From Verrucomicrobiales bacterium (GTDB lineage Bacteria > Verrucomicrobiota > Verrucomicrobiia > Verrucomicrobiales > DEV007), in NCBI GenBank assembly GCA_002698785.1, contig PAAG01000049.1, forward strand, positions 124,001 through 188,000: 64,000 nt of DNA, written 5' to 3'. The first letter of the stretch is position 1; each line of letters opens with the position of its first letter. The translations under genes were made by a program, and so were the position numbers. The notes under the pieces are model-generated. The model was not told where the DNA came from. It worked only from the letters and a program-made list of their open reading frames with translations, and searched no databases. Below are positions 7,953-19,706 of the stretch, piece after piece.

Positions 7953-9506
7953 TTACGGATTCAAAAAAGCGCGGATAACACGACCGTCCCGCGTGAGAAT
8001 CATTTCCGTAGTTTTATCCTGAGGAAGAGATCCGAGTAGATCGTAGAACGTCGTCACGTCAGTGACTGGATCCTGATTAATGCGATGAATCAAGTCACCT
8101 TTACGGAACCGCTGCGAAGCCTGGGAACCCTTTCTCACCTTCGTGATCAGGACTGCTGCAGTCGAGTCGTTCAGCCCCAGGGCGACTCTCTGCTCAGATG
8201 TCAGATTACTCACTTCAATTCCGAGAGCTTCCACCACTGCCTGGCCGCTTGCCGCAATGTCAGAACGCAGCTTCAACGTATTCGTGTCGGACTTCGCCAT
8301 TACGCTTACCGAAGTCTGCATCGATTCGCCTTTGCGAATCAGCAAAATGTCCACAACCTCGCCCGACTTCTTCGCACGAATTCGAGAAAGTGTGTCCTCA
8401 GCATTCTTCGCCCCTTTCCCATCGAACTGCTTGATCACATCCCCCGGCTTCAAGCCAGCCTCCTCAGCAGGCGACCCCTTGACCACATTGGTAACCAATG
8501 CGCCCTGCGTTGAATTCAGGCCCAGGGCTATCGCGTAGTTCCGCGAAATATTCGTCAATTCGAGCCCGATGTATCCCCGAATCAACGGCTTCCCGAGAAC
8601 GATGGCTTCGAAGACTTCCTTCACTTCGTTCGCCGGAATCGCGAGCCCAATCCCCTGCCAGACACGCACATCCTGCTGACCGGTGAAAATCGCGACACTA
8701 ATACCAATGATTTCGCCCCTCATGTTCACCAGCGGTCCACCGGAATTCCCCGGATTAATCACGGCATCGACCTGGAAATACTCGTTCGACCCGTCGCTCA
8801 GCTCCCTCTGTTTCGCGCTGATAATTCCTCGGGTGACGGTTTCATTGAGCCCAAAAGGGTTTCCCACCGCCAGCACCATTTCTCCTACTCGGACACTATC
8901 GGAGTCGCCAAATCCCAACGGCCGAAATTTCGGCAATTCCCCTCCCTCAGGAGTCTGTATCTGGAGCACCGCGACATCAGCAACCGGATCGCTGCCTACC
9001 CATTCTGCCGCGTAGACACTTCCGTCGTGCAAGGTGATCTTGATCTGGTCAACACCGGCTACCACGTGGTGATTGGTCACAATATGCCCCTGCTCAGTAA
9101 CGATGACGCCTGAGCCCAACCCGGGAGCATCATACTTCTCGTTTTGCCGATATCCGAAAAGGCCCCAAGGGTCAGTAGGTACGACCCTGGTGACATTCAC
9201 ACTTGTTGTCGTATCAATGCTCACCACCGAAGGAACAACTGCGTCTGTGAGATCAGAGAGGGCAACGTTCACCTTTTCAAGGATACCCGTATCATTGAGA
9301 TCGAGGGGAACAGCTCGGAGCAGAGGTTCCGCTTCCGCCTGCCCTACAATTGGATCCTCTGCGCCAATCACAGCCGTAACCGGCCGCCCACTGAGAAGAT
9401 CGAAGATATCATATCGGTTTTCCCGATCGATCAGTCCAAAATAAGCAAGACCTGCGACGCAAACGATCGCGATCAGGGCGAGAAGCTGTGAAAACATGCG
9501 AGTCAT
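7953..9506 (-). CDS. HtrA/DegP-like serine protease with two PDZ domains
   Basis: A 517-residue envelope protease with an N-terminal membrane anchor or signal (residues 4-25). The trypsin-like domain shows the complete triad: His147 in TNHHVVAG, Asp177 in ADVAVL, Ser255 in NPGNSGGPLV. PDZ1 (about 300-395, IGLELTNIS to KGESMQ) and PDZ2 (about 410-515) follow, as in DegP/DegQ. Expected role: degrading or chaperoning misfolded envelope proteins. It lies 28 bp downstream of the thioredoxin-fold gene on the same strand, so the two probably form an envelope quality-control operon. Confidence 0.93.
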   Translation of the reverse strand: MTRMFSQLLALIAIVCVAGLAYFGLIDRENRYDIFDLLSGRPVTAVIGAEDPIVGQAEAEPLLRAVPLDLNDTGILEKVNVALSDLTDAVVPSVVSIDTTTSVNVTRVVPTDPWGLFGYRQNEKYDAPGLGSGVIVTEQGHIVTNHHVVAGVDQIKITLHDGSVYAAEWVGSDPVADVAVLQIQTPEGGELPKFRPLGFGDSDSVRVGEMVLAVGNPFGLNETVTRGIISAKQRELSDGSNEYFQVDAVINPGNSGGPLVNMRGEIIGISVAIFTGQQDVRVWQGIGLAIPANEVKEVFEAIVLGKPLIRGYIGLELTNISRNYAIALGLNSTQGALVTNVVKGSPAEEAGLKPGDVIKQFDGKGAKNAEDTLSRIRAKKSGEVVDILLIRKGESMQTSVSVMAKSDTNTLKLRSDIAASGQAVVEALGIEVSNLTSEQRVALGLNDSTAAVLITKVRKGSQASQRFRKGDLIHRINQDPVTDVTTFYDLLGSLPQDKTTEMILTRDGRVIRAFLNP

Positions 9507-9534
9507 ATCCCCGGTAAAAGAAAATGAGACAAAA

Positions 9535-10542
9535 TTAAGGTTCGTTCTGTTCAGTTGCTGGCGGCTCCCAGATGGGAAAGGACTCCACGAACTTCTCGTC
9601 GTCGAGTGAAAGATCGCGAATATCCATCACCCAATCCTGTCCCGATACATCAAGTAGAATGAGTTGTTCCTCATTTCGCTTGTCGAATCTGGCAAAAATC
9701 TCTTTTCCAAAATCATTGGTCCACTTTCGGTACCCTAGCTTCAAAAGCTCCGCTTTTTGCTGCTCTATCGAGGCCAGCACCGGATTACAGGCAAGCTTCA
9801 GTTGGTTGAAATAATCGACCGGCCGTCCAGTGCGATAGCCACGAATCCCTTTCTCCACCTCCCCATTCGGATTGAAAATCAGGACGTTGGGATAGCCCCT
9901 CACCTTGAATTTATCCTTAATCTCCCGCAGCTTTGGATGAGCATCCGTAATGTTCCTCGGGAAATTGAGATAGCAGATGATCAGGTTCTCTTTCACGTAT
10001 TCGTTGAAACTCTTGGTAGAAAATACCTCTTCCGAGAGTGCCATACTCTGGGTGTTCCAGATCCCCGTAAAAAGGAGCATCAGTGGCTTTTGCTCCATTT
10101 GCGCCCGTTCAAATGCGTAGTGGGGATTGATCTCCCACCAAGCACTGAAAGGATCGTCGGGGTACACCTTCACTCGCTCCGGACGCACGTTTTCCACCAC
10201 TCGCGCCGTGCTCTGAAGCGACGAAATTGTCGGACCCAATCCCTTCGGCTTTCCTGAATTGGGAGAAACCGAATTTGGCGCTGGAGTCACCGACTGGGGC
10301 GGCATAGCGACCGGACGGGCCGGTTGCGGCATCGTAGGACCAAAACCGGACGGCTGGGGTGGCGATGTCGGCGTAGCAACAGGAACAGCTTGAACAGCTT
10401 CGGGCTTACTTTCCTCAGCCGGAGCTGCAGGAACAGGGGGCGCATCTACCCGATTCTCTTCCTGAGCGGCTGCACACAGACAGAAAGCGCTGCAAACAGC
10501 CACTACCGGCAGTAAGAAGTTCTCTTGCCTAAGCACTCGCAT
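9535..10542 (-). CDS. Secreted thioredoxin-fold protein with Pro-rich linker, no CxxC
   Basis: The start at 10542 (MRVLRQENFLLP) gives a proper signal peptide ending in CAAAQ; a longer frame from 10662 would have an unlikely leader. Residues 30-120 form a Pro/Ala/Val-rich linker. The second half is a Thioredoxin_7-like domain: KPLMLLFTGIWNTQSM, a helix EEVFSTKSFNEYV, IICYLNFPRN, then the cis-Pro loop KFKVRGYPNVLIFNPNGE. At the active-site position stands WNTQ instead of WCxxC, so it is not redox active by the usual route. The C-terminal stretch (residues ~265-320) resembles an SHD1-like small domain. Upstream partner of HtrA. Confidence 0.72.
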   Translation of the reverse strand: MRVLRQENFLLPVVAVCSAFCLCAAAQEENRVDAPPVPAAPAEESKPEAVQAVPVATPTSPPQPSGFGPTMPQPARPVAMPPQSVTPAPNSVSPNSGKPKGLGPTISSLQSTARVVENVRPERVKVYPDDPFSAWWEINPHYAFERAQMEQKPLMLLFTGIWNTQSMALSEEVFSTKSFNEYVKENLIICYLNFPRNITDAHPKLREIKDKFKVRGYPNVLIFNPNGEVEKGIRGYRTGRPVDYFNQLKLACNPVLASIEQQKAELLKLGYRKWTNDFGKEIFARFDKRNEEQLILLDVSGQDWVMDIRDLSLDDEKFVESFPIWEPPATEQNEP

Positions 10543-10548
10543 AACTCG

Positions 10549-10554
10549 ATTATA
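10549..10554 (-). promoter_or_regulatory. Perfect TATAAT box six bases before the thioredoxin-fold gene start
   Basis: On the minus strand TATAAT is followed by CGAGTT and then the ATG at 10542. If it is a real -10 box, transcription would begin at or next to the start codon, giving a leaderless mRNA. No good -35 is visible. Confidence 0.35.
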
Positions 10555-10649
10555 CGCAAAGAAAGCACGATTTTTGAGATAGGGAAATTGACAATGGGCA
10601 GGATTCTTGCTCCCGTTGCTTCCGCTCCCAGATAGCTGGCCTGAGCACA

Positions 10650-11168
10650 ATGGCACGAACAACTTTATACAGAGCTCTGATTTTTACGCTGTTATTCACC
10701 CTCTGGGTGGTACTCTCGGGGCTGTTGGATGCTTTCCACCTTACCCTGGGAGTGATCTCCTGCGGTCTCGTCACATGGTTGTCTGGCGACTTTCTATTCT
10801 CTGACCGATCCTCGAGCCTGGCAGTTCGTTTCCGACAGTCAATTCGGATGATCTCCTACTGTGGGTGGCTGCTCTGGCAGATAGTGCTGGCAAACATCCA
10901 GGTCTTTCGCTTGGCTTTCGGCCCAAAATCAGACTTGCAGCCGCAGATCGTCCGCTTCCAGACAAATCTTCAGACCGACTTCGAGAAATTTCTTCTCGCC
11001 AACTCGATCACTCTCACTCCCGGAACCGTAACGATCAAGATTTTGGGAGACACCTTTTACGTCCATGCTATCAGTGACACGGCTGCGGCCGGTCTTGATG
11101 GAACCATGGAAAACAAAATTTCTGCCATTTTCGCCTCCCCCTCAACCAAGGCGATGACTGAAGTATGA
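10650..11168 (+). CDS. mrpE: Na+/H+ antiporter subunit E (MrpE/MnhE)
   Basis: First gene of an eleven-gene operon. The 172-residue protein has two or three N-terminal membrane helices (residues 10-45 and 65-90). It then has a cytoplasmic alpha/beta domain with the MrpE block LLANSITLTPGTVTI and DTFYVHAIS. MrpE is the small subunit at the edge of Mrp antiporters, equivalent to MbhA. Its stop overlaps the start of the next gene (ATGA), which implies translational coupling. The upstream 107 bp is shared with the divergent thioredoxin-fold gene. Confidence 0.9.
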   Translation: MARTTLYRALIFTLLFTLWVVLSGLLDAFHLTLGVISCGLVTWLSGDFLFSDRSSSLAVRFRQSIRMISYCGWLLWQIVLANIQVFRLAFGPKSDLQPQIVRFQTNLQTDFEKFLLANSITLTPGTVTIKILGDTFYVHAISDTAAAGLDGTMENKISAIFASPSTKAMTEV

Positions 11169-11479
11169 GTTTTGAGCAATTCATTATAGGAGCAGGGGTT
11201 GCCTTGTTCCTTCTCATGCTTCCTGCGATGTGGCGTATCACGGTAGGCCCGACCGCTCTGGACCGCATCGTGGGGGTAAACGTCGTGGGAACCAAAACGG
11301 CAGTTCTTCTCGTTATTATCGGAATGGTATTCGGGCGGGTAGAGATGTTTGTCGATTTTGCCCTGGCTTACGCACTCCTGAATTTCACCGGATCGCTGGC
11401 AGCATCCCGATTCCTTCACAAATACAAATCCAACAGCGAAGATCCGACCAGCGAGATGGAGGTCTCCAGAGAGAACTAA
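11165..11479 (+). CDS. mrpF: Na+/H+ antiporter subunit F (MrpF/MnhF)
   Basis: A 104-residue protein with three membrane helices. The family signature is clear: WRITVGPTALDRIVGVNVVGTK followed by a helix and FVDFALAYALLNFTGSLA. Equivalent of MbhB. It starts inside the mrpE stop codon and is followed after 3 bp by mrpG, in the standard E-F-G order. Confidence 0.93.
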   Translation: MSFEQFIIGAGVALFLLMLPAMWRITVGPTALDRIVGVNVVGTKTAVLLVIIGMVFGRVEMFVDFALAYALLNFTGSLAASRFLHKYKSNSEDPTSEMEVSREN

Positions 11480-11482
11480 GAC

Positions 11483-11854
11483 ATGATCTTCGTCATCCTC
11501 AGCGCCATCCTGATTGTCACCGGCCTCGTCTTCTTCGTTGGCTCGGCTGTGGGATTATTGCGCTTCCCCGATTTTTACTCCCGCATGCATGCAGCCGGGA
11601 AAGGGGATACGCTCTCCAGTCTCTTGGTCTTGCTCGGGTTGGCCGTGTATCAACTAAAAGACTTTCACGGCTTCTCAGAAGATTGGCCCATCTTGCTGGT
11701 CATCATAAAGATTCTCGCCATCAGTGTGTTCATTTTGATCACCAGCCCTACCAGCACCCATGCTCTGATGGATGCGGGATGGGAAGACGGAATCAAACCA
11801 ACGATTCAAAAAGGATCGGCCAACCACCTCGAAGAAGACACAAAGGACATCTGA
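11483..11854 (+). CDS. mrpG: Na+/H+ antiporter subunit G (MrpG/MnhG)
   Basis: A 123-residue protein with three helices. The typical block AVGLLRFPDFYSRMHAAGKGDTL lies after the first helix, and the last helix ends at SPTSTHALMDAG. Equivalent of MbhC. MrpG, E and F form the small-subunit end of Mrp complexes. The charged tail after residue 100 is longer than in many homologues. Confidence 0.93.
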   Translation: MIFVILSAILIVTGLVFFVGSAVGLLRFPDFYSRMHAAGKGDTLSSLLVLLGLAVYQLKDFHGFSEDWPILLVIIKILAISVFILITSPTSTHALMDAGWEDGIKPTIQKGSANHLEEDTKDI

Positions 11855-11866
11855 CCCTCTCTTAAC

Positions 11867-12112
11867 GTGATTTTCTCATTCGACATCATTATCCTGATCT
11901 TCCTGGTGATCGCAGCCGTGATTTCCCTCAGCGTGAAGGACTTATTGAGCGCATCCATGATCTTCGGGATCTACGGATTTCTGATCTGCCTTCTCTGGGC
12001 GGAAATGGGCGCGGTAGACGTCGCATTTACGGAAGCGGCAGTGGGCGCTGGAGTAAGTGCCGTTCTCTTGATCGCAACGGTATTCAACACGAAGAGGAGG
12101 TCTTCAGACTGA
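11867..12112 (+). CDS. DUF4040-type antiporter subunit (MbhD-like, equals part of MrpA C-terminus)
   Basis: An 81-residue, three-helix protein. It starts at a GTG (11867), the only start that keeps the first helix. The core SVKDLLSASMIFGIYGFLICLLW then AEMGAVDVAFTEAAVGAG is the DUF4040 signature. In Bacillus-type Mrp this segment is fused to the end of MrpA; in archaeal Mbh it is a separate gene, MbhD. The conserved Glu/Asp residues (EMGAVD, FTEA) are thought to lie on the ion path. It overlaps the next start by one base. Confidence 0.85.
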   Translation: MIFSFDIIILIFLVIAAVISLSVKDLLSASMIFGIYGFLICLLWAEMGAVDVAFTEAAVGAGVSAVLLIATVFNTKRRSSD

Positions 12113-12906
12113 TGTTAACCAAGGTCATAGCTTTCATCGCGGTAGCGATCACAGGTTCACTACTCCTCTACGGTGTGGCGGACTTCCCCTCTTTCGGCGA
12201 CCCGAACTCCCCCGCCAACGCAGGCGTCGAAGGCGGAGCCCCTTCAATTTCCCAATACTTCATCACCGAATCGTACAAAGACACCAAGGTTCCTAACTTG
12301 GTCACCTCAGTCCTCGCCGACTACCGGGGATACGATACGATGTTTGAAACCGTGGTCGTTTTCGCCGGCGGAATGGCCATCTTCGCGATATTGCGAGTGC
12401 TCCGCTCAAAAGAGGAACCACCAAAACCACAGTCTAGAGCTGAAACTTTCGTTCACGGGGATCACAATCGAATCATCGTGGGGACCACCTGCAAGCTGGT
12501 CATCCCCGTGATCCAACTCTTCGCTCTCTACGTCATCGCCCACGGACACCATAGCCCCGGTGGCGGTTTCCAAGGGGGAGTCCTGATCGGAGCGAGCTTT
12601 ATCCTTCTCGCTCTGGCAGCAGACCTGAAGACTGCCCTGAGCCGACTGAATGAACCTAACTACATTCGCCTCGCCTGTATTGGTATCCTTATCTACGCAG
12701 GCTTCGGGGTGCTTTGTCAGATTCTCGGTGGCAACTTCCTCGACTACGGAGTTCTTCAGCCCGTGCTATTTACTGACGGCCCTGAGATGGCTCGCTCGCA
12801 CAGTATGCTCGGGGTAGAAATCGGTGTCGCCCTCACTGTATCCACTATCATGTTTGCCATCTATGCAAACCTGGCCAGCCGGGGAACTCTCAACGAGGGG
12901 CTTTAA
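12112..12906 (+). CDS. mrpB: MbhE-MnhB fused antiporter subunit
   Basis: A 264-residue protein that joins two parts. Residues 1-100 match the MbhE-like end of MrpA (first helix, then SVLADYRGYDTMFETVVVFAGGMAIF). Residues 115-264 are MnhB: a helix, then YVIAHGHHSPGGGFQGGVLIGASF and a final helix after EIGVALTVS. The HGHxSPGGGFQGG motif is diagnostic for MrpB/MbhF. Hence one polypeptide covers what Mbh complexes make as E and F. Confidence 0.88.
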   Translation: MLTKVIAFIAVAITGSLLLYGVADFPSFGDPNSPANAGVEGGAPSISQYFITESYKDTKVPNLVTSVLADYRGYDTMFETVVVFAGGMAIFAILRVLRSKEEPPKPQSRAETFVHGDHNRIIVGTTCKLVIPVIQLFALYVIAHGHHSPGGGFQGGVLIGASFILLALAADLKTALSRLNEPNYIRLACIGILIYAGFGVLCQILGGNFLDYGVLQPVLFTDGPEMARSHSMLGVEIGVALTVSTIMFAIYANLASRGTLNEGL

Positions 12907-12923
12907 TCCTGACGGATTTCACT

Positions 12924-13451
12924 ATGTCGGAGTTTTTCGAACAGACCATCCAACCGCACTTCAACTTCTGGATCTACGTGATCCTGATGATGCTCGGTCT
13001 GTGGGCAGTGATCGCGAAAAAGAACATGATCAAGAAATTGATCGGCCTTTCCATTTTCCAGACTGCGATCATTCTTTTCTACGTCTCCATTGGAGTGAAA
13101 GAAGATGCGACCATCCCCATCCTTGATCACCATGGCCCTGAGCACCACGAAGTCGTGCACGAGAATGGGGAACACATCGAAGATGCTGAGACTTCTGCTC
13201 ACCCGGAAGAAGTTCACGAGAAAAAAGGAGATCATTCCCACGGAGATGACCACGGTCATGACGACCATGCGACTGATCCTGACACGATGGCAAACCCTTT
13301 GCCTCATGTCCTCATGCTGACAGCAATTGTTGTAGGGGTTGCCACGCTGGGGGTCGCCCTCGCTATTTGTCAGATGCTTTTCAAAGAATTTGGAACTCTC
13401 GAAGAAGACGAGATTCTCGCAGAATTAAAAGACAGCGCTTCGGATGATTGA
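12924..13451 (+). CDS. mrpC: Na+/H+ antiporter subunit C (MrpC/NuoK-like) with His-rich insertion
   Basis: The protein has 175 residues against about 110-120 for usual MrpC. The first two helices (residues 14-60) and the third (NPLPHVLMLTAIVVGVATLGVALAI, residues ~118-145, the NuoK-type PHxLxLTAIVV signature) are normal. Between helices 2 and 3 sits an insertion of about 55 residues. It is dominated by His, Asp and Glu (DHHGPEHHEVVHENGEH, then HSHGDDHGHDDHATD). By homology this loop is expected on one face of the membrane and could bind metal. Its end overlaps the next gene by 8 nt. Confidence 0.88.
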   Translation: MSEFFEQTIQPHFNFWIYVILMMLGLWAVIAKKNMIKKLIGLSIFQTAIILFYVSIGVKEDATIPILDHHGPEHHEVVHENGEHIEDAETSAHPEEVHEKKGDHSHGDDHGHDDHATDPDTMANPLPHVLMLTAIVVGVATLGVALAICQMLFKEFGTLEEDEILAELKDSASDD

Positions 13452-15003
13452 TCAATTGCCCGCCATTATGGTTCTGGCCCCGATGTTTGGGGCACTGATG
13501 ATCGGGCTCTTCGGTCAGAAGGATCACCGTGTCTGCTTCCCTATCGTATTCACTTCGCTTATCATTTCACTGGGTGCTGCTATCGGCTGCGCAAACCTGG
13601 TGACGAAGGATGGCACGATCGATTACTTCATGGCGGGTTGGGAAGAACCCCTGGGAATCGGCATTCAACTCCGGATCGACCACCTCAACGCTCTCGTCAT
13701 CGTCCTGATAGGTGTCGCCACCACGCTCGTCTCGTTTTTCTCGATTCGTAGAGTCGGCGCCCTCGATACAGAGAAGACTCCGCATTTTTACATTCTCTAT
13801 CTGCTCCTTTGTACGGGGCTATATGGCATCACCATCACAGCGGACGCGTTCAACCTTTTCGTCCTAGTCGAGATTACCTCACTGACCAGCTACGGCCTGA
13901 TCGCCATGGGTAGCTCCCGCCGCGGCACCCACGCAGCGATCAACTACGTTCTCATGGGAACGATCGGCGCCTCTTTCTACCTCCTTGGCGTCGGTTACCT
14001 CTACCTGAAGACAGGAACGCTGAACATGCACGATATTCAGGCGATCCTTCAGGCGAATGAAGAGGTCCGGAATTCCAACGCGGTCATCATCGCCTTTCTC
14101 TTCATCCTCATGGGCATTTGGATCAAAATGGCGTTCTTCCCCCTTCACGGGTGGTTGCCGAATGCCTACAGCTATTGCCCCTCCAGCACCGCCTGCCTGC
14201 TCGCGCCACTGATGACGAAGATCTCTGTCTACGTCATGATTCGCGTCATGATTTCGATTTTTGGTCTGGAATGGATCTTTATCCATCTGGGCTGGAGCCA
14301 CCTTGTCGTGATACTCGCGGTCATCGCAATCGTTGCCGGATCTGTCCTGGCACTCGCTCAACGTGAGATCAAGAAGATGCTCTGCTACCTCATCGTCGCA
14401 GAGGTGGGATACATGGTGGGAGGTGCCTGGCTATCCGATTCGAACATGTGGGGACTTTCAGGTGCCATGTATCACGTGCTTTCGGACGCACTCATGACAC
14501 TCTGTTTGTTCTTCGTTGCAGGCATCTGGTCGAAGTGCATTGACGCCAAAGAAATTGACGATTTGGAAGGCGTCTTCAAAAAGATGCCCATCACCTCCGC
14601 CTGCTTTATTCTCGGGGCACTCGCGATGATTGGTGTGCCTCCGACCTCCGGATTCTTCAGCAAGTTCTACCTGATCCGCGGAGGCATCGAAGGTGGCCAC
14701 TGGGAATACGTTGCGGCACTTCTCTTCTCCAGCCTTGTGAATGCAGTGCTGTTCTTCCGCATTTTTGAAATTGCCTTCTTTGGCAAAAACCCGCCAGAAG
14801 GGCACGGCCATGATGAAGAGCATCACGACGACCACGAGGACCTCCATCCCGTATTAGAGCACGAGGTGAGTTGGAGAGTCACCATCCCCCTTATCGTGAC
14901 GGCAGTCCTCATTGTCCTTCTAGGATTATTCAACGGCCCGGTAGTCGAATTTATCCGCGAAGCATTTCCGCCGACGTCCGAAATCGTGTCCGCTCGCCCT
15001 TAA
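13444..15003 (+). CDS. mrpD: Proton/cation-pumping antiporter subunit, NuoL/M/N superfamily (MrpD-like 1)
   Basis: A 519-residue protein with about 14 membrane helices. Core signatures: LFVLVEITSLTSYGLIA (the Glu of the TM5 pump motif), the Lys-bearing GIWIKMAFFPLHGWLPNAY, and SVLALAQREIKKMLCYLIVAEVGYM. Between the last helices is a His/Asp/Glu loop (GHGHDEEHHDDHEDLHP). It is the first of three pump-type subunits in the operon. Equivalent to MrpD/MbhH. The start overlaps mrpC. Confidence 0.92.
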   Translation: MIDQLPAIMVLAPMFGALMIGLFGQKDHRVCFPIVFTSLIISLGAAIGCANLVTKDGTIDYFMAGWEEPLGIGIQLRIDHLNALVIVLIGVATTLVSFFSIRRVGALDTEKTPHFYILYLLLCTGLYGITITADAFNLFVLVEITSLTSYGLIAMGSSRRGTHAAINYVLMGTIGASFYLLGVGYLYLKTGTLNMHDIQAILQANEEVRNSNAVIIAFLFILMGIWIKMAFFPLHGWLPNAYSYCPSSTACLLAPLMTKISVYVMIRVMISIFGLEWIFIHLGWSHLVVILAVIAIVAGSVLALAQREIKKMLCYLIVAEVGYMVGGAWLSDSNMWGLSGAMYHVLSDALMTLCLFFVAGIWSKCIDAKEIDDLEGVFKKMPITSACFILGALAMIGVPPTSGFFSKFYLIRGGIEGGHWEYVAALLFSSLVNAVLFFRIFEIAFFGKNPPEGHGHDEEHHDDHEDLHPVLEHEVSWRVTIPLIVTAVLIVLLGLFNGPVVEFIREAFPPTSEIVSARP

Positions 15004-15011
15004 TGATCTGA

Positions 15012-16502
15012 ATGGAGAATACCGTAACCAGCCTCCTTCCCGTCCTGGCCTGTCTTGCATCCTTGCTGGCAGTTCCACTGATCGTGTTGTTTCGCAAAGA
15101 GCCTTTCCTGCGGGAAATGTCGACCTTTGCCGCAGGCATTCTGAAATTCACCTTTGTCTTGATGATGCTTCCCATCATTCTTGATGGAAAGACTATCGTA
15201 CACACCTTCACCGACGGGATTGGTGGCATCAATGTACCCATCATGTTCCGAGTGGATGGGCTGGGAATGCTCTTTGCCCTCGTGGCTTCATCCCTCTGGA
15301 TCCTGACATCTCTCTACGCGATCGGATATATGCGAGGTCTGAAGGAGCACTCGCAGACTCGCTTCTTTGCGTTCTTCGCTCTTTCTCTCTCGGCCACCTT
15401 GGGTGTCGCCTTCGCAGGCAACCTGCTCACCCTGTATCTTTTCTACGAGATGCTCTCGCTCTCGACCTGGCCCTTGGTGACTCACCATCAGGACAAGGAA
15501 GCCCGCACCGGAGGTCGCACCTATCTCTCCTATCTCCTCGGCACTTCGATCGCCTTTGCCATCCCCGCGATCATTTTCACCTTCGTGAAGGCAGATGGCG
15601 ACCTTTCCTTCGCCGGAGAAGCGATCCTTGCCGGTCAAGATCTTGGCTACTGGCCCGCACTCTTCCTTCTCCTCGGATTTGCCTTCGGTTTTTCAAAGGC
15701 AGGCATGATGCCTTTCCATTCATGGCTGCCTGGAGCCATGGTCGCTCCCACGCCGGTTTCGGCCCTGCTTCACGCCGTGGCAGTGGTCAAGGTCGGTGTC
15801 TTCTGTGTGATCCGCGTGATCACTGGCGTTTTCGGAGTGGAGTTTTTCAAGGACCTCAGTGTGAACCTCGTCCTTTGCTGGATCGCGGCTTTTACCGTTC
15901 TCGTCTCGTCCCTGATTGCCCTCTCGCAGGACAACCTGAAACGCCGACTCGCCTTTTCCACCATCGGCCAGCTTTCCTACATCGTGCTTGGCGTAGCCCT
16001 CGCAACCCAGCACGCGGTGGCCGGTAGTATGATGCACATCGCGATGCACGCCTTCGGGAAGATCACCCTCTTCTTCTGCGCAGGTGCAATCTTCGTCGCC
16101 TACGGCAAAAAGTACATTTCTCAGCTGGATGGTCTTGGTCGTAAAATGCCATTCACTTTTGGTGCGTTCGCCATCGGAGCCATGAGCGTCACCGGCCTCC
16201 CTCCAACGGGCGGTCTCTTGAGTAAAATCTACCTCGTCTGGGGTGCGGCAGAAGCTCACCAGATCGCTCTGTTGTGCGTCTACCTCATCAGCTCCATTCT
16301 GAACGGGGCGTATTTCTTCCCCATCGTGTATCGCGCTTTCTTCAAGCCTGCACCCGAAGCAGAAATTGCAACGCCCGGAGTCAAAGAAGCTCCTCTCGCC
16401 TGTGTGCTTCCACTTTCGATCACCGCAGTCGGCTCCGTGTTACTGTTCTTCTTCCCCGGCCTGCTTCTCGAACTCACCAATTTGATGACTGGCGCCAAGT
16501 AA
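15012..16502 (+). CDS. Proton/cation-pumping antiporter subunit (MrpD-like 2)
   Basis: A 496-residue polytopic protein, 8 bp after the first MrpD-like gene. It shows LTLYLFYEMLSLSTWPLV (pump Glu), GFSKAGMMPFHSWLPGAMVAPTPVSALLHAV (the Lys and the classic MPFHxWLP block), LSQDNLKRRLAFSTIGQLSYIVLG and a late GLPPTGGLLSKIYL. The PTPVSALLHAV block makes it closer to NuoM/MrpD/MrpA cores than to the first copy, which has PSSTACLLAPL there. It probably forms a second ion channel in the complex. Confidence 0.9.
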   Translation: MENTVTSLLPVLACLASLLAVPLIVLFRKEPFLREMSTFAAGILKFTFVLMMLPIILDGKTIVHTFTDGIGGINVPIMFRVDGLGMLFALVASSLWILTSLYAIGYMRGLKEHSQTRFFAFFALSLSATLGVAFAGNLLTLYLFYEMLSLSTWPLVTHHQDKEARTGGRTYLSYLLGTSIAFAIPAIIFTFVKADGDLSFAGEAILAGQDLGYWPALFLLLGFAFGFSKAGMMPFHSWLPGAMVAPTPVSALLHAVAVVKVGVFCVIRVITGVFGVEFFKDLSVNLVLCWIAAFTVLVSSLIALSQDNLKRRLAFSTIGQLSYIVLGVALATQHAVAGSMMHIAMHAFGKITLFFCAGAIFVAYGKKYISQLDGLGRKMPFTFGAFAIGAMSVTGLPPTGGLLSKIYLVWGAAEAHQIALLCVYLISSILNGAYFFPIVYRAFFKPAPEAEIATPGVKEAPLACVLPLSITAVGSVLLFFFPGLLLELTNLMTGAK

Positions 16503-16512
16503 ATTGCCTGAC

Positions 16513-16737
16513 ATGACACCGCAAACCGAAGACGAAACGATCCAGGAGCTGAAGCACGATACCGTGCCCGGTTATCCGAAGGCGTTCCTGATTGCTTGTG
16601 GTGTAATGATCGCATATCTCGCCATCATTCTATTGACGTCTCCGGGACCGGCGAAAGGACACCACGGGGACGAAAAAGACCATCACGCCGAAGACTCACA
16701 CTCCACCCATGACGCAGAAGAATCCAAATCCCACTGA
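16513..16737 (+). CDS. Small single-helix protein with His-rich tail, within the antiporter operon
   Basis: A 74-residue protein. The ATG at 16513 is preferred over a TTG at 16504. It has an N-terminal acidic stretch, then one membrane helix (AFLIACGVMIAYLAIILL, about residues 23-42). The tail is hydrophilic and loaded with His, Asp, Glu and Lys (GHHGDEKDHHAEDSHSTHD). I do not recognise a named family. Position between pump subunits and 29-nt overlap with the next gene argue that it is a structural or metal-binding accessory subunit of the antiporter. That role is inferred. Confidence 0.7.
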   Translation: MTPQTEDETIQELKHDTVPGYPKAFLIACGVMIAYLAIILLTSPGPAKGHHGDEKDHHAEDSHSTHDAEESKSH

Positions 16738-17026
16738 GCCGACCGGCTGGTTCGATAAGAGGGAAAATGTCCAGAAGCTCCTCAAGGGGCTTTATGGAGT
16801 ATGCGGATTTTTCGTCCTGATCGATGTGATCTTCTGGGTCACCGGTTTTGACAAGCACCCTTACCTCAAGTGGGAAAAGTGGCCCGCTTTCTATGCCGTG
16901 TTCGGCTTTGTTGCCTGCGTCCTGCTTGTCGCCGTGGCGAAATATATTATTCGCCCTCTCACGATGCGTGGCGAAGATTACTACGAGTCAAACACAGTAG
17001 AACAGAAAGGAGACGACCATGCCTGA
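16709..17026 (+). CDS. Small two-helix membrane protein within the antiporter operon
   Basis: A 105-residue protein with two helices (about residues 25-46 and 60-85) linked by a short aromatic loop (GFDKHPYLKWEKWPAFYAVFG). The tail contains MRGEDYYE. No Mrp letter is known to me for it, but similar small proteins accompany Mbh-like antiporter clusters. It overlaps its neighbours by 29 nt upstream and 8 nt downstream, so it must be co-translated with them. Probable accessory subunit. Confidence 0.7.
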   Translation: MTQKNPNPTEPTGWFDKRENVQKLLKGLYGVCGFFVLIDVIFWVTGFDKHPYLKWEKWPAFYAVFGFVACVLLVAVAKYIIRPLTMRGEDYYESNTVEQKGDDHA

Positions 17027-18806
17027 GGCTCTCCATCCTGCATTCCTTTACCTCTTCGGAGCGTTGCTGATCCCTTTTCTGAAAGGGCGCACTCGGCAGG
17101 CCGTCGCGATGCTGATCCCCATCGCCGGGTTCATCAATTACTTCCAGATCCCGGAGGGAGTGCACTGGAAGTATCAGTTGCTCGACTTCGAGCTCATCCT
17201 CGGACGGGCTGATGACTGGAGCCTCATCTTCCTGAATATCTTCACGGTGTTGTCCTTTATCGGGATTCTTTACATCATCAAAGACAACAAGCCCCTCATG
17301 CTGTCTGCGGGTCTTCTCTACGCGGGGAGTGCGATGGGAGTAATCCTTGCGGGCGACTTGATCACATTGTTCCTTTTCTGGGAGATGTTGACCGCCGCGG
17401 CTGTGCTTTGCCTTCTTGATCGCGGAACCCCCGCGTCGGGCCGTGCTGCGACGCGCTACCTGCTCATCCACATCCTCGGCGGAGTGGTCTTGCTCGCCGG
17501 TATTGTCATCCACTTGGCATCGGGAGGAAGTGCGGCATTCGACAAGATCGAACTCTCCGGCATCGGGGCCTGGTTGATCTTTATCGGTTTTGGAATCAAC
17601 TGCGCATGGCCCGTTCTCGGAGCCTGGCTCACCGACACGTATCCGGAAGCCTCCATCGGCGGCATCGTCTTCATGGCGACGTATACCACGAAGACTGCCA
17701 TCTACGTTCTCGCTCGCACGTTTCCGGGAGAAGAGACTTTGATCTGGATCGGCGTCGTGATGGCGGTTGTTCCACTCTTCTATGCTTTCGTAGCGAACGA
17801 CCTTCGCCGGGTGCTCGCTTACTGCCTGGTCAACCAGGTCGGGTTCATGGTCATCGGCGTCGGCCTTGGCACTGGGCTGTCTCTGAACGGCACCGCCGCC
17901 CACGCCTACTGTCACATTCTTTACAAAGCGCTCCTTTTCATGTCCATCGGAGCAGTCATGTATCGCACGGGCAAATCGAAAGCTACAGAGCTGGGTGGTC
18001 TGTACAAGTCCATGCCGTGGACCTGCCTTTTCTGCTGTATCGGTGCGGTGAGTATTTCAGCCCCGCTGTTTTGTGGCTTCGTCAGTAAATCAATGATCAT
18101 CAGTGCAGCTGCCAGCGGCGGATATTCGATTGCCTGGCTGGCACTCTTGTTTGGCTCTGCCGGTGTATTCCTGTGTGCTGGACTGAAAGTTCCCTTCTTC
18201 ACTTTCTTCAATCGCGACTCTGGAGTGCGTTGTGAGGAAGCACCCACCAATCAGCTCCTCGCCATGGGACTGACTGCATTTCTCTGCATCTTTGTCGGAA
18301 CTTTCCCGAACCAATTCCTGTATCCCATGCTTCCGAATCAGGAGTACATGTATGTTCCGTACACCGTCGCACACGTTACGGATCTGCTTGCGATGCTTTT
18401 CTTCACTGGCTTGGCCTTTACGCTATTGATTCGTTCGGGCTTCAAGCCTGCCGAGATTCGCTCGACTCTCCTCGATGCGGACTTCCTCTACCGAAAAGGT
18501 GGCCCGGCTTTCTACAAGGTGATGGACAAGTCCCTCAACGGGCTCAACGCCGCGACGAGCAAAGTCATGATCGGCAGCGTCGTACACCATGTCTCGAATT
18601 TCTTCGAATCAGGAGCGTCGCGCTTCCTGGTGTGGGCATTGACGCCAATCTGGATGATCCGCGGAGACAGCAAAGAACAAATCGAAGAACATCGCCAATC
18701 GGTTTTCAAACGAGCCAAGCGAGGAGCTTTTCCCATTGGTCTGACCGCCTTCTGCGCAGTTGTGATGTTAGGGCTTCTCTCGTTGATCTTTCTTTTGGAG
18801 AGCTAG
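17019..18806 (+). CDS. Proton/cation-pumping antiporter subunit (MrpD-like 3, longest)
   Basis: A 595-residue polytopic protein closing the operon. It has LITLFLFWEMLTAAAVLCLLD (pump Glu), NCAWPVLGAWLTDTYPEASIGGIVF in place of the usual MPFHxWLP block, and FVANDLRRVLAYCLVNQVGFM. The Lys-Ala-Pro-Phe surroundings have diverged compared with copies 1 and 2, so this subunit may pump differently or be a structural half-channel. A long amphipathic C-terminal helix region (about 480-560), ending in a last membrane helix, recalls the lateral helix of NuoL. The start overlaps the previous gene by 8 nt. Confidence 0.88.
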   Translation: MPEALHPAFLYLFGALLIPFLKGRTRQAVAMLIPIAGFINYFQIPEGVHWKYQLLDFELILGRADDWSLIFLNIFTVLSFIGILYIIKDNKPLMLSAGLLYAGSAMGVILAGDLITLFLFWEMLTAAAVLCLLDRGTPASGRAATRYLLIHILGGVVLLAGIVIHLASGGSAAFDKIELSGIGAWLIFIGFGINCAWPVLGAWLTDTYPEASIGGIVFMATYTTKTAIYVLARTFPGEETLIWIGVVMAVVPLFYAFVANDLRRVLAYCLVNQVGFMVIGVGLGTGLSLNGTAAHAYCHILYKALLFMSIGAVMYRTGKSKATELGGLYKSMPWTCLFCCIGAVSISAPLFCGFVSKSMIISAAASGGYSIAWLALLFGSAGVFLCAGLKVPFFTFFNRDSGVRCEEAPTNQLLAMGLTAFLCIFVGTFPNQFLYPMLPNQEYMYVPYTVAHVTDLLAMLFFTGLAFTLLIRSGFKPAEIRSTLLDADFLYRKGGPAFYKVMDKSLNGLNAATSKVMIGSVVHHVSNFFESGASRFLVWALTPIWMIRGDSKEQIEEHRQSVFKRAKRGAFPIGLTAFCAVVMLGLLSLIFLLES

Positions 18807-18863: not shown

Positions 18864-19706
18864 GTGAAAGCTGAACACCAGTATCAAACGGTTCCTCTGG
18901 ACAGCGCACAGATGGACCGGTTCCACCGAGTGGCACCTGGGACGCTCGCTCGGAGGGATACAGCTTTCTATCGAAGAGAGCTGACTCTGGGATTCGAATT
19001 TCTCCTCACCGGAGTGATCGCCATCGTAGGAACCTTGGCCTTCGGGTGGTCTGCGATGAACTGGCTCGTTTTCCTGATCATCGGCACGTTTTCAGGAATC
19101 CTCACGGACACCATCAAACTCTTCTTCCTGAACAAACCGATCAATCAGCACGCGGACAATTCTGCTGACGATCAATTCGTAGGCCTTGTGTGCGATGCCC
19201 TTCGCAAAGGGGAAAAGGAGATCCCGAAAATGCAGGATGGCGGAAGATACAAACCGGAGATCGGTCTCGTCTTCGATCTGGTTTTCGCACCGGTGTCGAC
19301 CTTGCTAATCTACTTTACGGTAAAGGAAAACGGCTTCGACGGCTGGAATGAGCTTTTCGGTCAGAAGCACTTTCTCACCTCCGTCATAGGCTTCTGTGCC
19401 TGGCAACTCCTGATGACGGTCTGGGAAATCGTTTCTTTTCGAATGACTACCAACCCGGAGAATCCCGTGAAGATTCTTCTCGGAGGACGAGGTGTCGGGC
19501 TGTTTTTTCTATTTTTCCTAACCGCTGCTACGGGCTCCTGCACGAAAGACCAAACGGACTACACCGTCGCTCTCTATGTCGCGAACGGCTTGCTCATCCT
19601 GATGGGGCTCCTCAACACGTTCGGTATTCTTTCCATTCGAAATGACTCCCGCTGGTTGCGAGAATACCTTGAGAAACGAAACCAAGGTTACGGAGCCGGC
19701 CGGTAA
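18864..19706 (+). CDS. Multi-pass membrane protein of unknown function
   Basis: A 280-residue protein with a GTG start at 18864 (an ATG at 18912 is possible). It has a cytoplasmic-looking N-terminus, two helices (about 47-92) and a soluble loop around QHADNSADDQFVGLVCDALRKGEKEIP. Four further helices (about 135-265) and a charged tail end it. I do not recognise the family. It follows the antiporter operon by 57 bp on the same strand and might belong to it. No ion-binding motif is evident. Confidence 0.6.
   Translation: MKAEHQYQTVPLDSAQMDRFHRVAPGTLARRDTAFYRRELTLGFEFLLTGVIAIVGTLAFGWSAMNWLVFLIIGTFSGILTDTIKLFFLNKPINQHADNSADDQFVGLVCDALRKGEKEIPKMQDGGRYKPEIGLVFDLVFAPVSTLLIYFTVKENGFDGWNELFGQKHFLTSVIGFCAWQLLMTVWEIVSFRMTTNPENPVKILLGGRGVGLFFLFFLTAATGSCTKDQTDYTVALYVANGLLILMGLLNTFGILSIRNDSRWLREYLEKRNQGYGAGR

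What the first reader, a model, noticed from the sequence alone, without database searches (positions are those of the whole stretch)
10650..18806. Mrp-type antiporter operon arranged like the antiporter half of Mbh, with three pump subunits and no hydrogenase
Gene order is E, F, G, a stand-alone DUF4040 gene, an MbhE-MnhB fusion, C, D-like, D-like, two small proteins, D-like. Established knowledge: Bacillus Mrp carries DUF4040 and MbhE-like parts on MrpA and has the order A-G. Archaeal Mbh/Mbs has E, F, G, D, E, B, C, D. This operon follows the second order but has no hydrogenase or NuoBCDI-like genes, and it has three NuoL/M/N-type subunits. It may be a cation/proton antiporter with more ion channels than standard Mrp.
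Basis: partly seen in the sequence, partly recalled or inferred. Interest (0 to 1): 0.65.

Follow-up and report, generated by a model that had tools for sequence, protein, structure and literature searches.

The report
Sodium/proton antiporter with three large subunits
This is a bacterial membrane exchanger, most likely swapping sodium for protons, of a kind already known and found in many bacteria; its less familiar part is a pair of large subunits plus a conserved, unnamed small protein that also occurs in some respiratory enzymes.

Summary
Eleven tightly packed genes at 10650-18806 encode E, F, G, MbhD, an MbhE-MnhB fusion, C, D1, D2, two small membrane proteins and D3, with no hydrogenase. 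The operon is a group 3 Mrp cation/proton antiporter and not unusual: the arrangement occurs in Verrucomicrobiota, Thermodesulfobacteriota, Nitrospirota, Pseudomonadota and, without the small proteins, on an annotated haloarchaeal plasmid. D1, D2 and D3 are three old separate clades, not recent copies. D1 resembles MrpD. D3 carries a lateral helix and matches MrpA best by fold. D2 is the extra antiporter-like subunit. In this D3 the TM7 lysine, called essential in Mrp, is asparagine, so "three pumps" is unproven: two have the full residue set. D2-sm2-D3 is a module: it replaces NuoL in some complex I operons (already reported for rhizobia), and the tree rejects a single clade of the complex I versions. 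sm2, the two-helix protein between D2 and D3, was found in 108 of 109 loci and has no credible Pfam, NCBIfam or PDB match; two public records call it hypothetical. New member of a known kind; sm2 and the D3 substitution are the parts worth following.

The parts
10650..11168 (+). MrpE / MnhE subunit (172 aa)
   Evidence: PF01899 117 bits
11165..11479 (+). MrpF subunit (104 aa)
   Evidence: PF04066 55 bits; Asp of the PT..DR motif kept, the Asp six residues on is Asn
11483..11854 (+). MrpG subunit (123 aa)
   Evidence: PF03334 90 bits; TIGR01300 above cut-off
11867..12112 (+). MbhD-like / DUF4040 protein (81 aa), counterpart of part of the MrpA C-terminus
   Evidence: PF13244 66 bits; alignment to MrpA C-termini
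12112..12906 (+). MbhE-MnhB fusion (264 aa)
   Evidence: PF20501 43 bits and PF04039 93 bits on one protein
12924..13451 (+). MrpC / NuoK-like subunit (175 aa) with a His-rich acidic insert between TM2 and TM3
   Evidence: PF00420 71 bits; NF005624 above cut-off; sequence
13444..15003 (+). D1, MrpD-like antiporter subunit (519 aa)
   Evidence: PF00361 188 bits; nearest solved chains 6u8y_H, 7qru_D (MrpD), 6cfw_H; own clade; four key residues kept
15012..16502 (+). D2, extra antiporter subunit (496 aa), MrpA/NuoL side of the tree (89% support)
   Evidence: PF00361 185 bits; nearest solved chain a NuoL; own clade; four key residues kept
16504..16737 (+). sm1, small one-TM protein with PGY..F motif and His-rich C-terminus (77 aa)
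   Evidence: profile match just upstream of D3 in 35 of 109 loci; one predicted TM
16709..17026 (+). sm2, small two-TM protein (105 aa), unnamed conserved partner of D2/D3
   Evidence: profile match just upstream of D3 in 108 of 109 loci; no credible NCBIfam, Pfam or PDB family
17019..18806 (+). D3, antiporter subunit with C-terminal lateral helix (595 aa), candidate for the MrpA-N/NuoL position; TM7 Lys is Asn
   Evidence: NF009310 (PRK12668) 643.6 bits, cut-off 564; model and fold match to MrpA; residues

Best explanation
The operon encodes a group 3 Mrp-type cation/proton antiporter. [quoted passage not shown] Inferred: the chain runs D3 (distal, its lateral helix lying along the others) - D2 - D1 - C - MbhD/E; protons enter through D1 and D2, and perhaps D3, driven by the membrane potential, and the charge changes at the D1/C/MbhD junction push sodium (or another cation) out. 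D3 lacks the TM7 lysine, so it more likely closes the chain and braces it through the lateral helix than works as a standard third proton channel. sm2 and sm1 are accessory subunits at the D2/D3 end.
For: Family matches for all nine named subunits. The gene set occurs as a unit in 57 of 80 scan loci, with 10 more that hold one or two of the marker genes and have at most 5.2 kb upstream of D3, and in 20 of 20 regions fetched out of the 30 other genomes with a hit. D1 resembles MrpD-type solved chains; D3 matches MrpA chains first and NuoL next by fold, with a long helix at 477-547. Residues that PMC7419157 calls essential (passages read) are partly kept: Glu TM5 / Lys TM7 / Lys TM8 / Lys TM12 in D1 and D2, and in the alignment a D...E pair that I take to be MrpA D792/E796 and the DR Asp of MrpF. 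No redox partner genes and no DabA.
Against: No transport activity was measured and the cation is not identified. The MrpF Asp six residues after the DR Asp, which I take to be D35, is Asn here and in the haloarchaeon; PMC7419157 calls D35 highly conserved but reports mild effects of Asn in B. subtilis. The His pair of MrpC that binds cations in the solved Mrp is not seen in this C subunit, nor in the three MrpC references. The TM7 lysine of D3 is Asn. The D3 model has modest confidence in the lateral helix (pLDDT about 54-80). Most subunits, D1 and D2 included, score below the NCBIfam equivalog cut-offs. The subunit order is inferred from homologues; no complex could be modelled.
Confidence: 0.8

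Rival explanations
1. It is the membrane arm of a redox-driven pump (Mbh, Mbs or complex I-like) whose electron-transfer genes lie elsewhere in the genome.
For: Gene order and the MbhE-MnhB fusion recall Mbs, where PMC8415708 reports the same fusion. D2-sm2-D3 does occur inside nuo operons of other genomes.
Against: No NiFe hydrogenase large subunit found in the genome; the only 49-kDa subunit lies in a nuo operon that has its own L, M and N on another contig. None of the 20 fetched related regions shows a best match to the nine nuo proteins searched for.
Confidence: 0.05
2. The antiporter really has three working proton channels and therefore moves more protons per cation than standard Mrp, suited to high pH or low energy.
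For: Three antiporter-like subunits; D3 keeps Glu TM5, Lys TM8 and Lys TM12 in 90 of 90 sequences. 50 of the 90 D3 have the TM7 Lys, 47 of them from Pseudomonadota, so a full third pump exists in the family.
Against: In the window D3 the TM7 Lys, described as absolutely conserved and essential in MrpA/MrpD (PMC7419157, passages), is Asn; so it is in all 5 named Verrucomicrobiota and in the complex I versions examined.
Confidence: 0.3
3. D2-sm2-D3 forms its own complex and is only transcribed with the Mrp genes.
For: The trio stands without detected Mrp or nuo genes in L115 and as the second copy in L058, and beside cytochrome-like ORFs in L056.
Against: In 57 of 80 loci it follows the Mrp genes, with short gaps here. 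Without it the window operon would have no MrpA-N counterpart.
Confidence: 0.1

Closest known systems
Stand-alone group 3 Mrp of Pyrococcus furiosus, mrpEFGBB'CD (PMC8415708, passages read)
   Same: Order E, F, G, MbhD/MbhE, B, C, D; no mrpA, no hydrogenase
   Different: One D subunit only; MbhD and MbhE are fused there, here MbhE and MnhB are fused
Mrp of 'Ca. Nitrospira alkalitolerans' (PMC7784846, passages read)
   Same: Group 3 Mrp with two NuoM/NuoL-like genes downstream of mrpD, judged by the authors to be more likely additional mrpA/D-like genes
   Different: Other phylum; small proteins not mentioned in the passages read; the record itself was not compared here
Mrp operon of Haloterrigena alkaliphila plasmid unnamed2
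   Same: Annotated E, F, G, DUF4040, MnhB, C, and three large subunits, the last named Na(+)/H(+) antiporter subunit D; they fall in the D1, D2 and D3 clades
   Different: No sm1 or sm2 match; DUF4040/MbhE and MnhB are split differently
Green complex I of rhizobia, two MrpD-like subunits in place of NuoL (named in PMC9040806, passages); taken here to be the operons of L129, L164, L165
   Same: Same D2-sm2-D3 trio; D2 and D3 of S. meliloti in the same clades
   Different: Sits between nuoK and nuoM in a NADH-quinone oxidoreductase operon
Group 1 Mrp (MrpA-G) of Bacillus and others (PMC5703873, section 5 read)
   Same: Homologous E, F, G, B, C and D parts; MrpA C-terminus is matched by MbhD plus MbhE
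   Different: MrpA is one protein there; here two antiporter-like subunits and separate MbhD/MbhE

Membership tests
Group 3 Mrp cation/proton antiporter | Mrp genes E, F, G, B, C, D present in one operon | tested here: met
Group 3 Mrp cation/proton antiporter | No full-length mrpA; mrpD-type genes, sometimes several (definition in PMC8415708; PMC5703873 defines the group by irregular gene order) | tested here: met
   Six PF00361 proteins found in the genome, three here and three in the nuo operon; D1, D2 and D3 show no DUF4040 or MbhE match
Group 3 Mrp cation/proton antiporter | Cation/proton exchange activity | not testable with these tools
   needs vesicle assay
Group 1 Mrp | MrpA with DUF4040 and MbhE domains fused to an antiporter-like N-terminus | tested here: not met
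   DUF4040 and MbhE are on separate genes
Membrane-bound hydrogenase (Mbh) / Mbs | NiFe hydrogenase-type large subunit and partner proteins | tested here: not met
   PF00374 0 matches in the genome; the only PF00346 match is in the nuo operon
Complex I (including the green rhizobial type) | nuo electron-transfer genes in the operon | tested here: not met
   none among the eleven genes; the genome's nuo operon is on contig C50
PRK12668 / NF009310 (D3) | Score over NCBIfam cut-off 564 bits | tested here: met
   643.6 bits
Canonical antiporter-like proton channel (D3) | Glu TM5, Lys TM7, Lys TM8 and Lys/Glu TM12 | tested here: not met
   TM7 Lys is Asn; the other three kept
Canonical antiporter-like proton channel (D1, D2) | Same four residues | tested here: met
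DAB / MpsAB inorganic carbon pump | DabA partner (PF10070) | tested here: not met
   0 matches in the genome

The most novel reading that the evidence does not exclude
D2-sm2-D3 is a portable double-antiporter module with its own unnamed subunit, sm2, that has been exchanged between Mrp antiporters, complex I and other complexes more than once. In it sm2's buried acid (Asp/Glu in TM1) joins the hydrophilic axis at the D2/D3 boundary, and the lysine-less D3 acts as a terminator and strut rather than a pump.
Probability: 0.3. Interest if true: 0.6.

Novelty: new member of a known kind. Interest (0 to 1): 0.35.

Why it matters
The operon itself is of a widespread but little described Mrp type: in the papers seen here it appears as the P. 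furiosus and Nitrospira cases and as a line in reviews. Its value is as a test bed: Mrp, this operon and complex I differ stepwise in how many antiporter-like subunits they chain together, so they can show whether each added subunit adds a translocated proton. A D3 without the TM7 lysine, beside relatives that have it, is a natural experiment on that residue. sm2 would be a new conserved subunit shared by an antiporter and a respiratory complex, so structures or models of either that leave it out would be incomplete.

Tried and rejected
Recent duplication of one mrpD: rejected; D1, D2 and D3 are three clades at 100% SH-aLRT, each containing bacteria and a haloarchaeon (a quick LG+G4 tree with long-branch warnings; the deeper joins, such as D1 with MrpD, are weak).

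Continuation into a redox complex: rejected. CO2 pump: no DabA. Na+-NQR for a sodium economy: TIGR01937 0 matches, so nothing learned about the cation.

Lateral helix as a ruler: the D3 tail from the LD.D motif to the end is 79-83 residues in most Pseudomonadota loci and 104-108 in the eight complex I loci and S. meliloti (104), which would fit one extra step; but Mrp-type D3 of Verrucomicrobiota, Thermodesulfobacteriota and the window have 106-114, the haloarchaeon 105, G071 95 and two Nitrospira 130-131, with no extra subunit gene seen. The window model puts part of the excess in a separate short helix 552-567; the model of a complex I D3 has pLDDT under 50 over 538-575, so the idea could not be decided.

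Gene 18864-19706 as a twelfth member: no match among the ORFs of the loci then held, its own genome apart, left out. Promoter and terminator scans gave no more than shuffles.

His-rich inserts as a conserved metal site: at least 5 His in 20 residues in 8 of 66 D1 and 1 of 58 C proteins, so not general.
Full report
Observation. The window lies at G000:C52:124001-188000 of a 7.0-Mb, 60-contig genome, 95.9% complete. Eleven ORFs on the + strand fill 10650-18806 with gaps of -29 to +17 bp. Pfam names nine of them: MrpE, MrpF, MrpG, MbhD/DUF4040, MbhE fused to MnhB, the MrpC/NuoK type, and three Proton_antipo_M proteins, here called D1, D2 and D3; the two small ones, sm1 and sm2, have no family.

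No redox partner. Six PF00361 proteins were found in the genome: these three and three of a nuo operon on contig C50. PF00346 has one match, in that nuo operon; PF00374 has none. DabA and NqrB have none. Next to the operon are a thioredoxin-like protein and an HtrA-like protease on one side and proteins without a family on the other.

How common it is. NCBIfam already has a named family for D3: NF009310, Na(+)/H(+) antiporter subunit D, 643.6 bits against a cut-off of 564; C and G also pass an NCBIfam cut-off, while D1, D2 and the rest score below theirs. In 145 genomes of the phylum 8 pass the D3 cut-off; read from fetched regions, two of the eight, the window and G071, have the Mrp set and six have the trio inside a nuo operon. 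In 56 nearer relatives 31 have a match at E 1e-120, 28 of them over the cut-off; by kinship 30 of 33 genomes of the genus, own included, 1 of 2 others of the family, and 0 of 21 others of the order; none of the 14 control genomes rings at that threshold. Regions were fetched from 20 of the 30 other genomes with a hit, and all 20 show the same order; in five of them F or MbhD or both are not called as separate genes (L147, L149, L152, L154, L158), and sm1 is found in 11. Of these 80, 57 have at least three of E, F, G, C and D1, 10 have one or two, 2 are nuo operons and 11 show neither; 8 of those 11 have about 2.1 kb or less upstream of D3. By NCBI's phyla the 57 are 38 Pseudomonadota, 7 Thermodesulfobacteriota, 5 Verrucomicrobiota, 3 Nitrospirota, 2 Myxococcota, 1 Bacillota (L107, doubtful) and 1 unplaced. 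A Haloterrigena alkaliphila plasmid carries the same order, annotated, without the small genes. The best-80 list is ranked by likeness to D3, so it says how wide the arrangement is, not how frequent.

The three large subunits. A 96-row quick tree puts D1 (18 rows), D2 (28) and D3 (28) in one clade each at 100% SH-aLRT, apart from MrpA, MrpD, NuoL, NuoM and NuoN. D2 and D3 lie on the MrpA/NuoL side with 89% support, below the star; where D1 joins is weak. The program warned of long branches. By sequence, D1 is nearest 6u8y_H, an MrpD and 6cfw_H, D2 nearest a NuoL and D3 nearest 6u8y_X; that 6u8y is the Mbs complex, with H as MbsH and X as MbsH', is recalled. The AlphaFold model of D3 (mean pLDDT 83.9; lateral helix region about 54-80) has a long helix at 477-547, a short one at 552-567 and a last TM helix; its best fold matches are MrpA chains, then NuoL. 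So D3 is the likely holder of the lateral helix and of the distal place, and D2 the added subunit.

Key residues. Aligned to E. coli NuoM E144, K234, K265 and E407 (positions recalled; the letters at those positions were checked), D2 keeps Glu, Lys, Lys, Lys in 28 of 28 and D1 in 18 of 18 except one Ser at TM8. D3 keeps Glu TM5, Lys TM8 and Lys TM12 in 90 of 90, but TM7 is Asn in 40 and Lys in 50; the window has Asn (one fragment, L054, was left out). Of the 50 Lys, 47 are Pseudomonadota and one each is labelled Nitrospirota, Planctomycetota and Bacillota; two Pseudomonadota of the scan and S. meliloti's complex I have Asn. Lys goes with the short C-terminal tail and Asn with the long one, with three exceptions (L085, L118 and L056, whose frame looks cut), and this largely follows descent. 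PMC7419157 describes the TM7 lysine as absolutely conserved and essential in Mrp (passages read). This counts against calling D3 a third standard pump. In the cation module a D...E pair that I take to be MrpA D792/E796 and the DR Asp of MrpF (I take it to be D29) are kept; the MrpF Asp six residues on, which I take to be D35, is Asn in the window and in Haloterrigena; and MbhD has its Glu four residues earlier than MrpA, as in the haloarchaeal protein. The His pair of MrpC is not seen in the C subunit, nor in the Dinoroseobacter, Streptomyces and Haloterrigena MrpC used for comparison. The numbering of these residues was mapped by eye, without the Anoxybacillus sequence.

sm2 and sm1. A profile of sm2 finds a match just upstream of D3, on the same strand, in 108 of 109 loci, with no hit elsewhere in them; the one without is the haloarchaeal plasmid. 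The profile was built from 19 sm2 proteins, the window's and 18 from 17 of these loci, so those 17 match by construction. Three of the 109 appear to be records fetched twice, judged by equal contig lengths (L148/L049, L153/L050, L161/L051), and the loci were chosen by their D3 or D2, so this is conservation given the pair. sm2 has two predicted TM helices. Its TM1 position 39 is Asp in 89 and Glu in 19 of 110 rows, Gly66 is invariant, and Glu89 and Tyr92 stand in 105 and 107. Scans of 13 members found no credible family in NCBIfam or Pfam (best E 0.0027 and 0.0058, no family in more than three members), and a profile found nothing in the PDB below E 0.36. One Sinorhizobium and one Phyllobacterium record label it hypothetical protein. 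sm1, one TM with a PGY motif, is found in 35 of 109 (profile of 9 proteins).

A module shared with complex I. D2-sm2-D3 sits between nuoK and nuoM in six phylum genomes, in L068 and Thermodesulfobacterium thermophilum (L083), and in rhizobial plasmids. [quoted passage not shown] In a 40-row tree of joined D2 and D3 (LG+G4) the nine complex I rows need two changes, and a single clade is rejected (AU p 0.0007; four Mrp rows have unusual composition and the haloarchaeal row is long). The direction of transfer is not shown. The trio also stands without detected Mrp or nuo genes (L115, second copy in L058) or beside cytochrome-like ORFs (L056).

Literature. PMC8415708 (passages) defines group 3 Mrp by lack of mrpA with mrpD sometimes in several copies, and reports the MbhE-MbhF fusion in Mbs. 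PMC7784846 (passages) reports two NuoM/L-like genes after mrpD in a Nitrospira Mrp. PMC5703873 (section 5 and passages read) gives the three groups and defines group 3 by irregular gene order. Searches for three or multiple mrpD, mrpD2/mrpD3, mrpD with Verrucomicrobia, DUF4040 with Mrp, group 3 Mrp, and MrpD-like with complex I listed no paper on this arrangement in Verrucomicrobiota; only open-licence papers are held. No paper on sm2 was met, but sm2 has no name to search for.

Verdict. An ordinary, widespread group 3 Mrp antiporter operon. Steps shown: gene content, order, distribution, three old clades, residue states, no redox partner found. Steps inferred: transport, direction, ion, subunit order, the roles of D3 and sm2.

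Noticed in passing
window 12924-13451, 13444-15003, 16504-16737: C, D1 and sm1 each carry a His-rich acidic stretch; stretches of at least 5 His in 20 residues occur in 8 of 66 related D1 and 1 of 58 related C proteins. Possibly metal binding or pH sensing.
   Followed up: partly
L038-L043: Six genomes of the phylum have a complex I operon in which D2-sm2-D3 stands between nuoK and nuoM, giving four antiporter-like subunits.
   Followed up: partly
L058:10200-13855 and L115:8196-11689: D2-sm2-D3 without detected Mrp or nuo genes beside it; in L058 it is a second copy, next to an ORF that by eye looks like a response regulator.
   Followed up: no
L056:3617-14714: D2-sm2-D3 of a Nitrospirae MAG beside ORFs with CxxCH motifs seen by eye; may be the oxidase complex with two MrpD-like subunits named TO_2 in PMC9040806.
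   Followed up: no
L044:7761-10544: In G071 a 927-aa ORF on the other strand separates D1 from D2-sm2-D3; by eye it looks like a P-type ATPase, not scanned.
   Followed up: no
window 7953-10662: The divergent HtrA-like and thioredoxin-like neighbours recur beside the operon in L049 (both) and L050 (thioredoxin-like).
   Followed up: no
L107: A contig titled Oceanobacillus sp. HTM 045 carries the gene arrangement seen in the alphaproteobacterial loci and a D3 with the TM7 Lys typical of Pseudomonadota; perhaps a mislabelled or contaminated record.
   Followed up: no
window 18864-19706: Protein of unknown family (280 aa) 57 bp after D3, not found among the ORFs of the other loci.
   Followed up: partly
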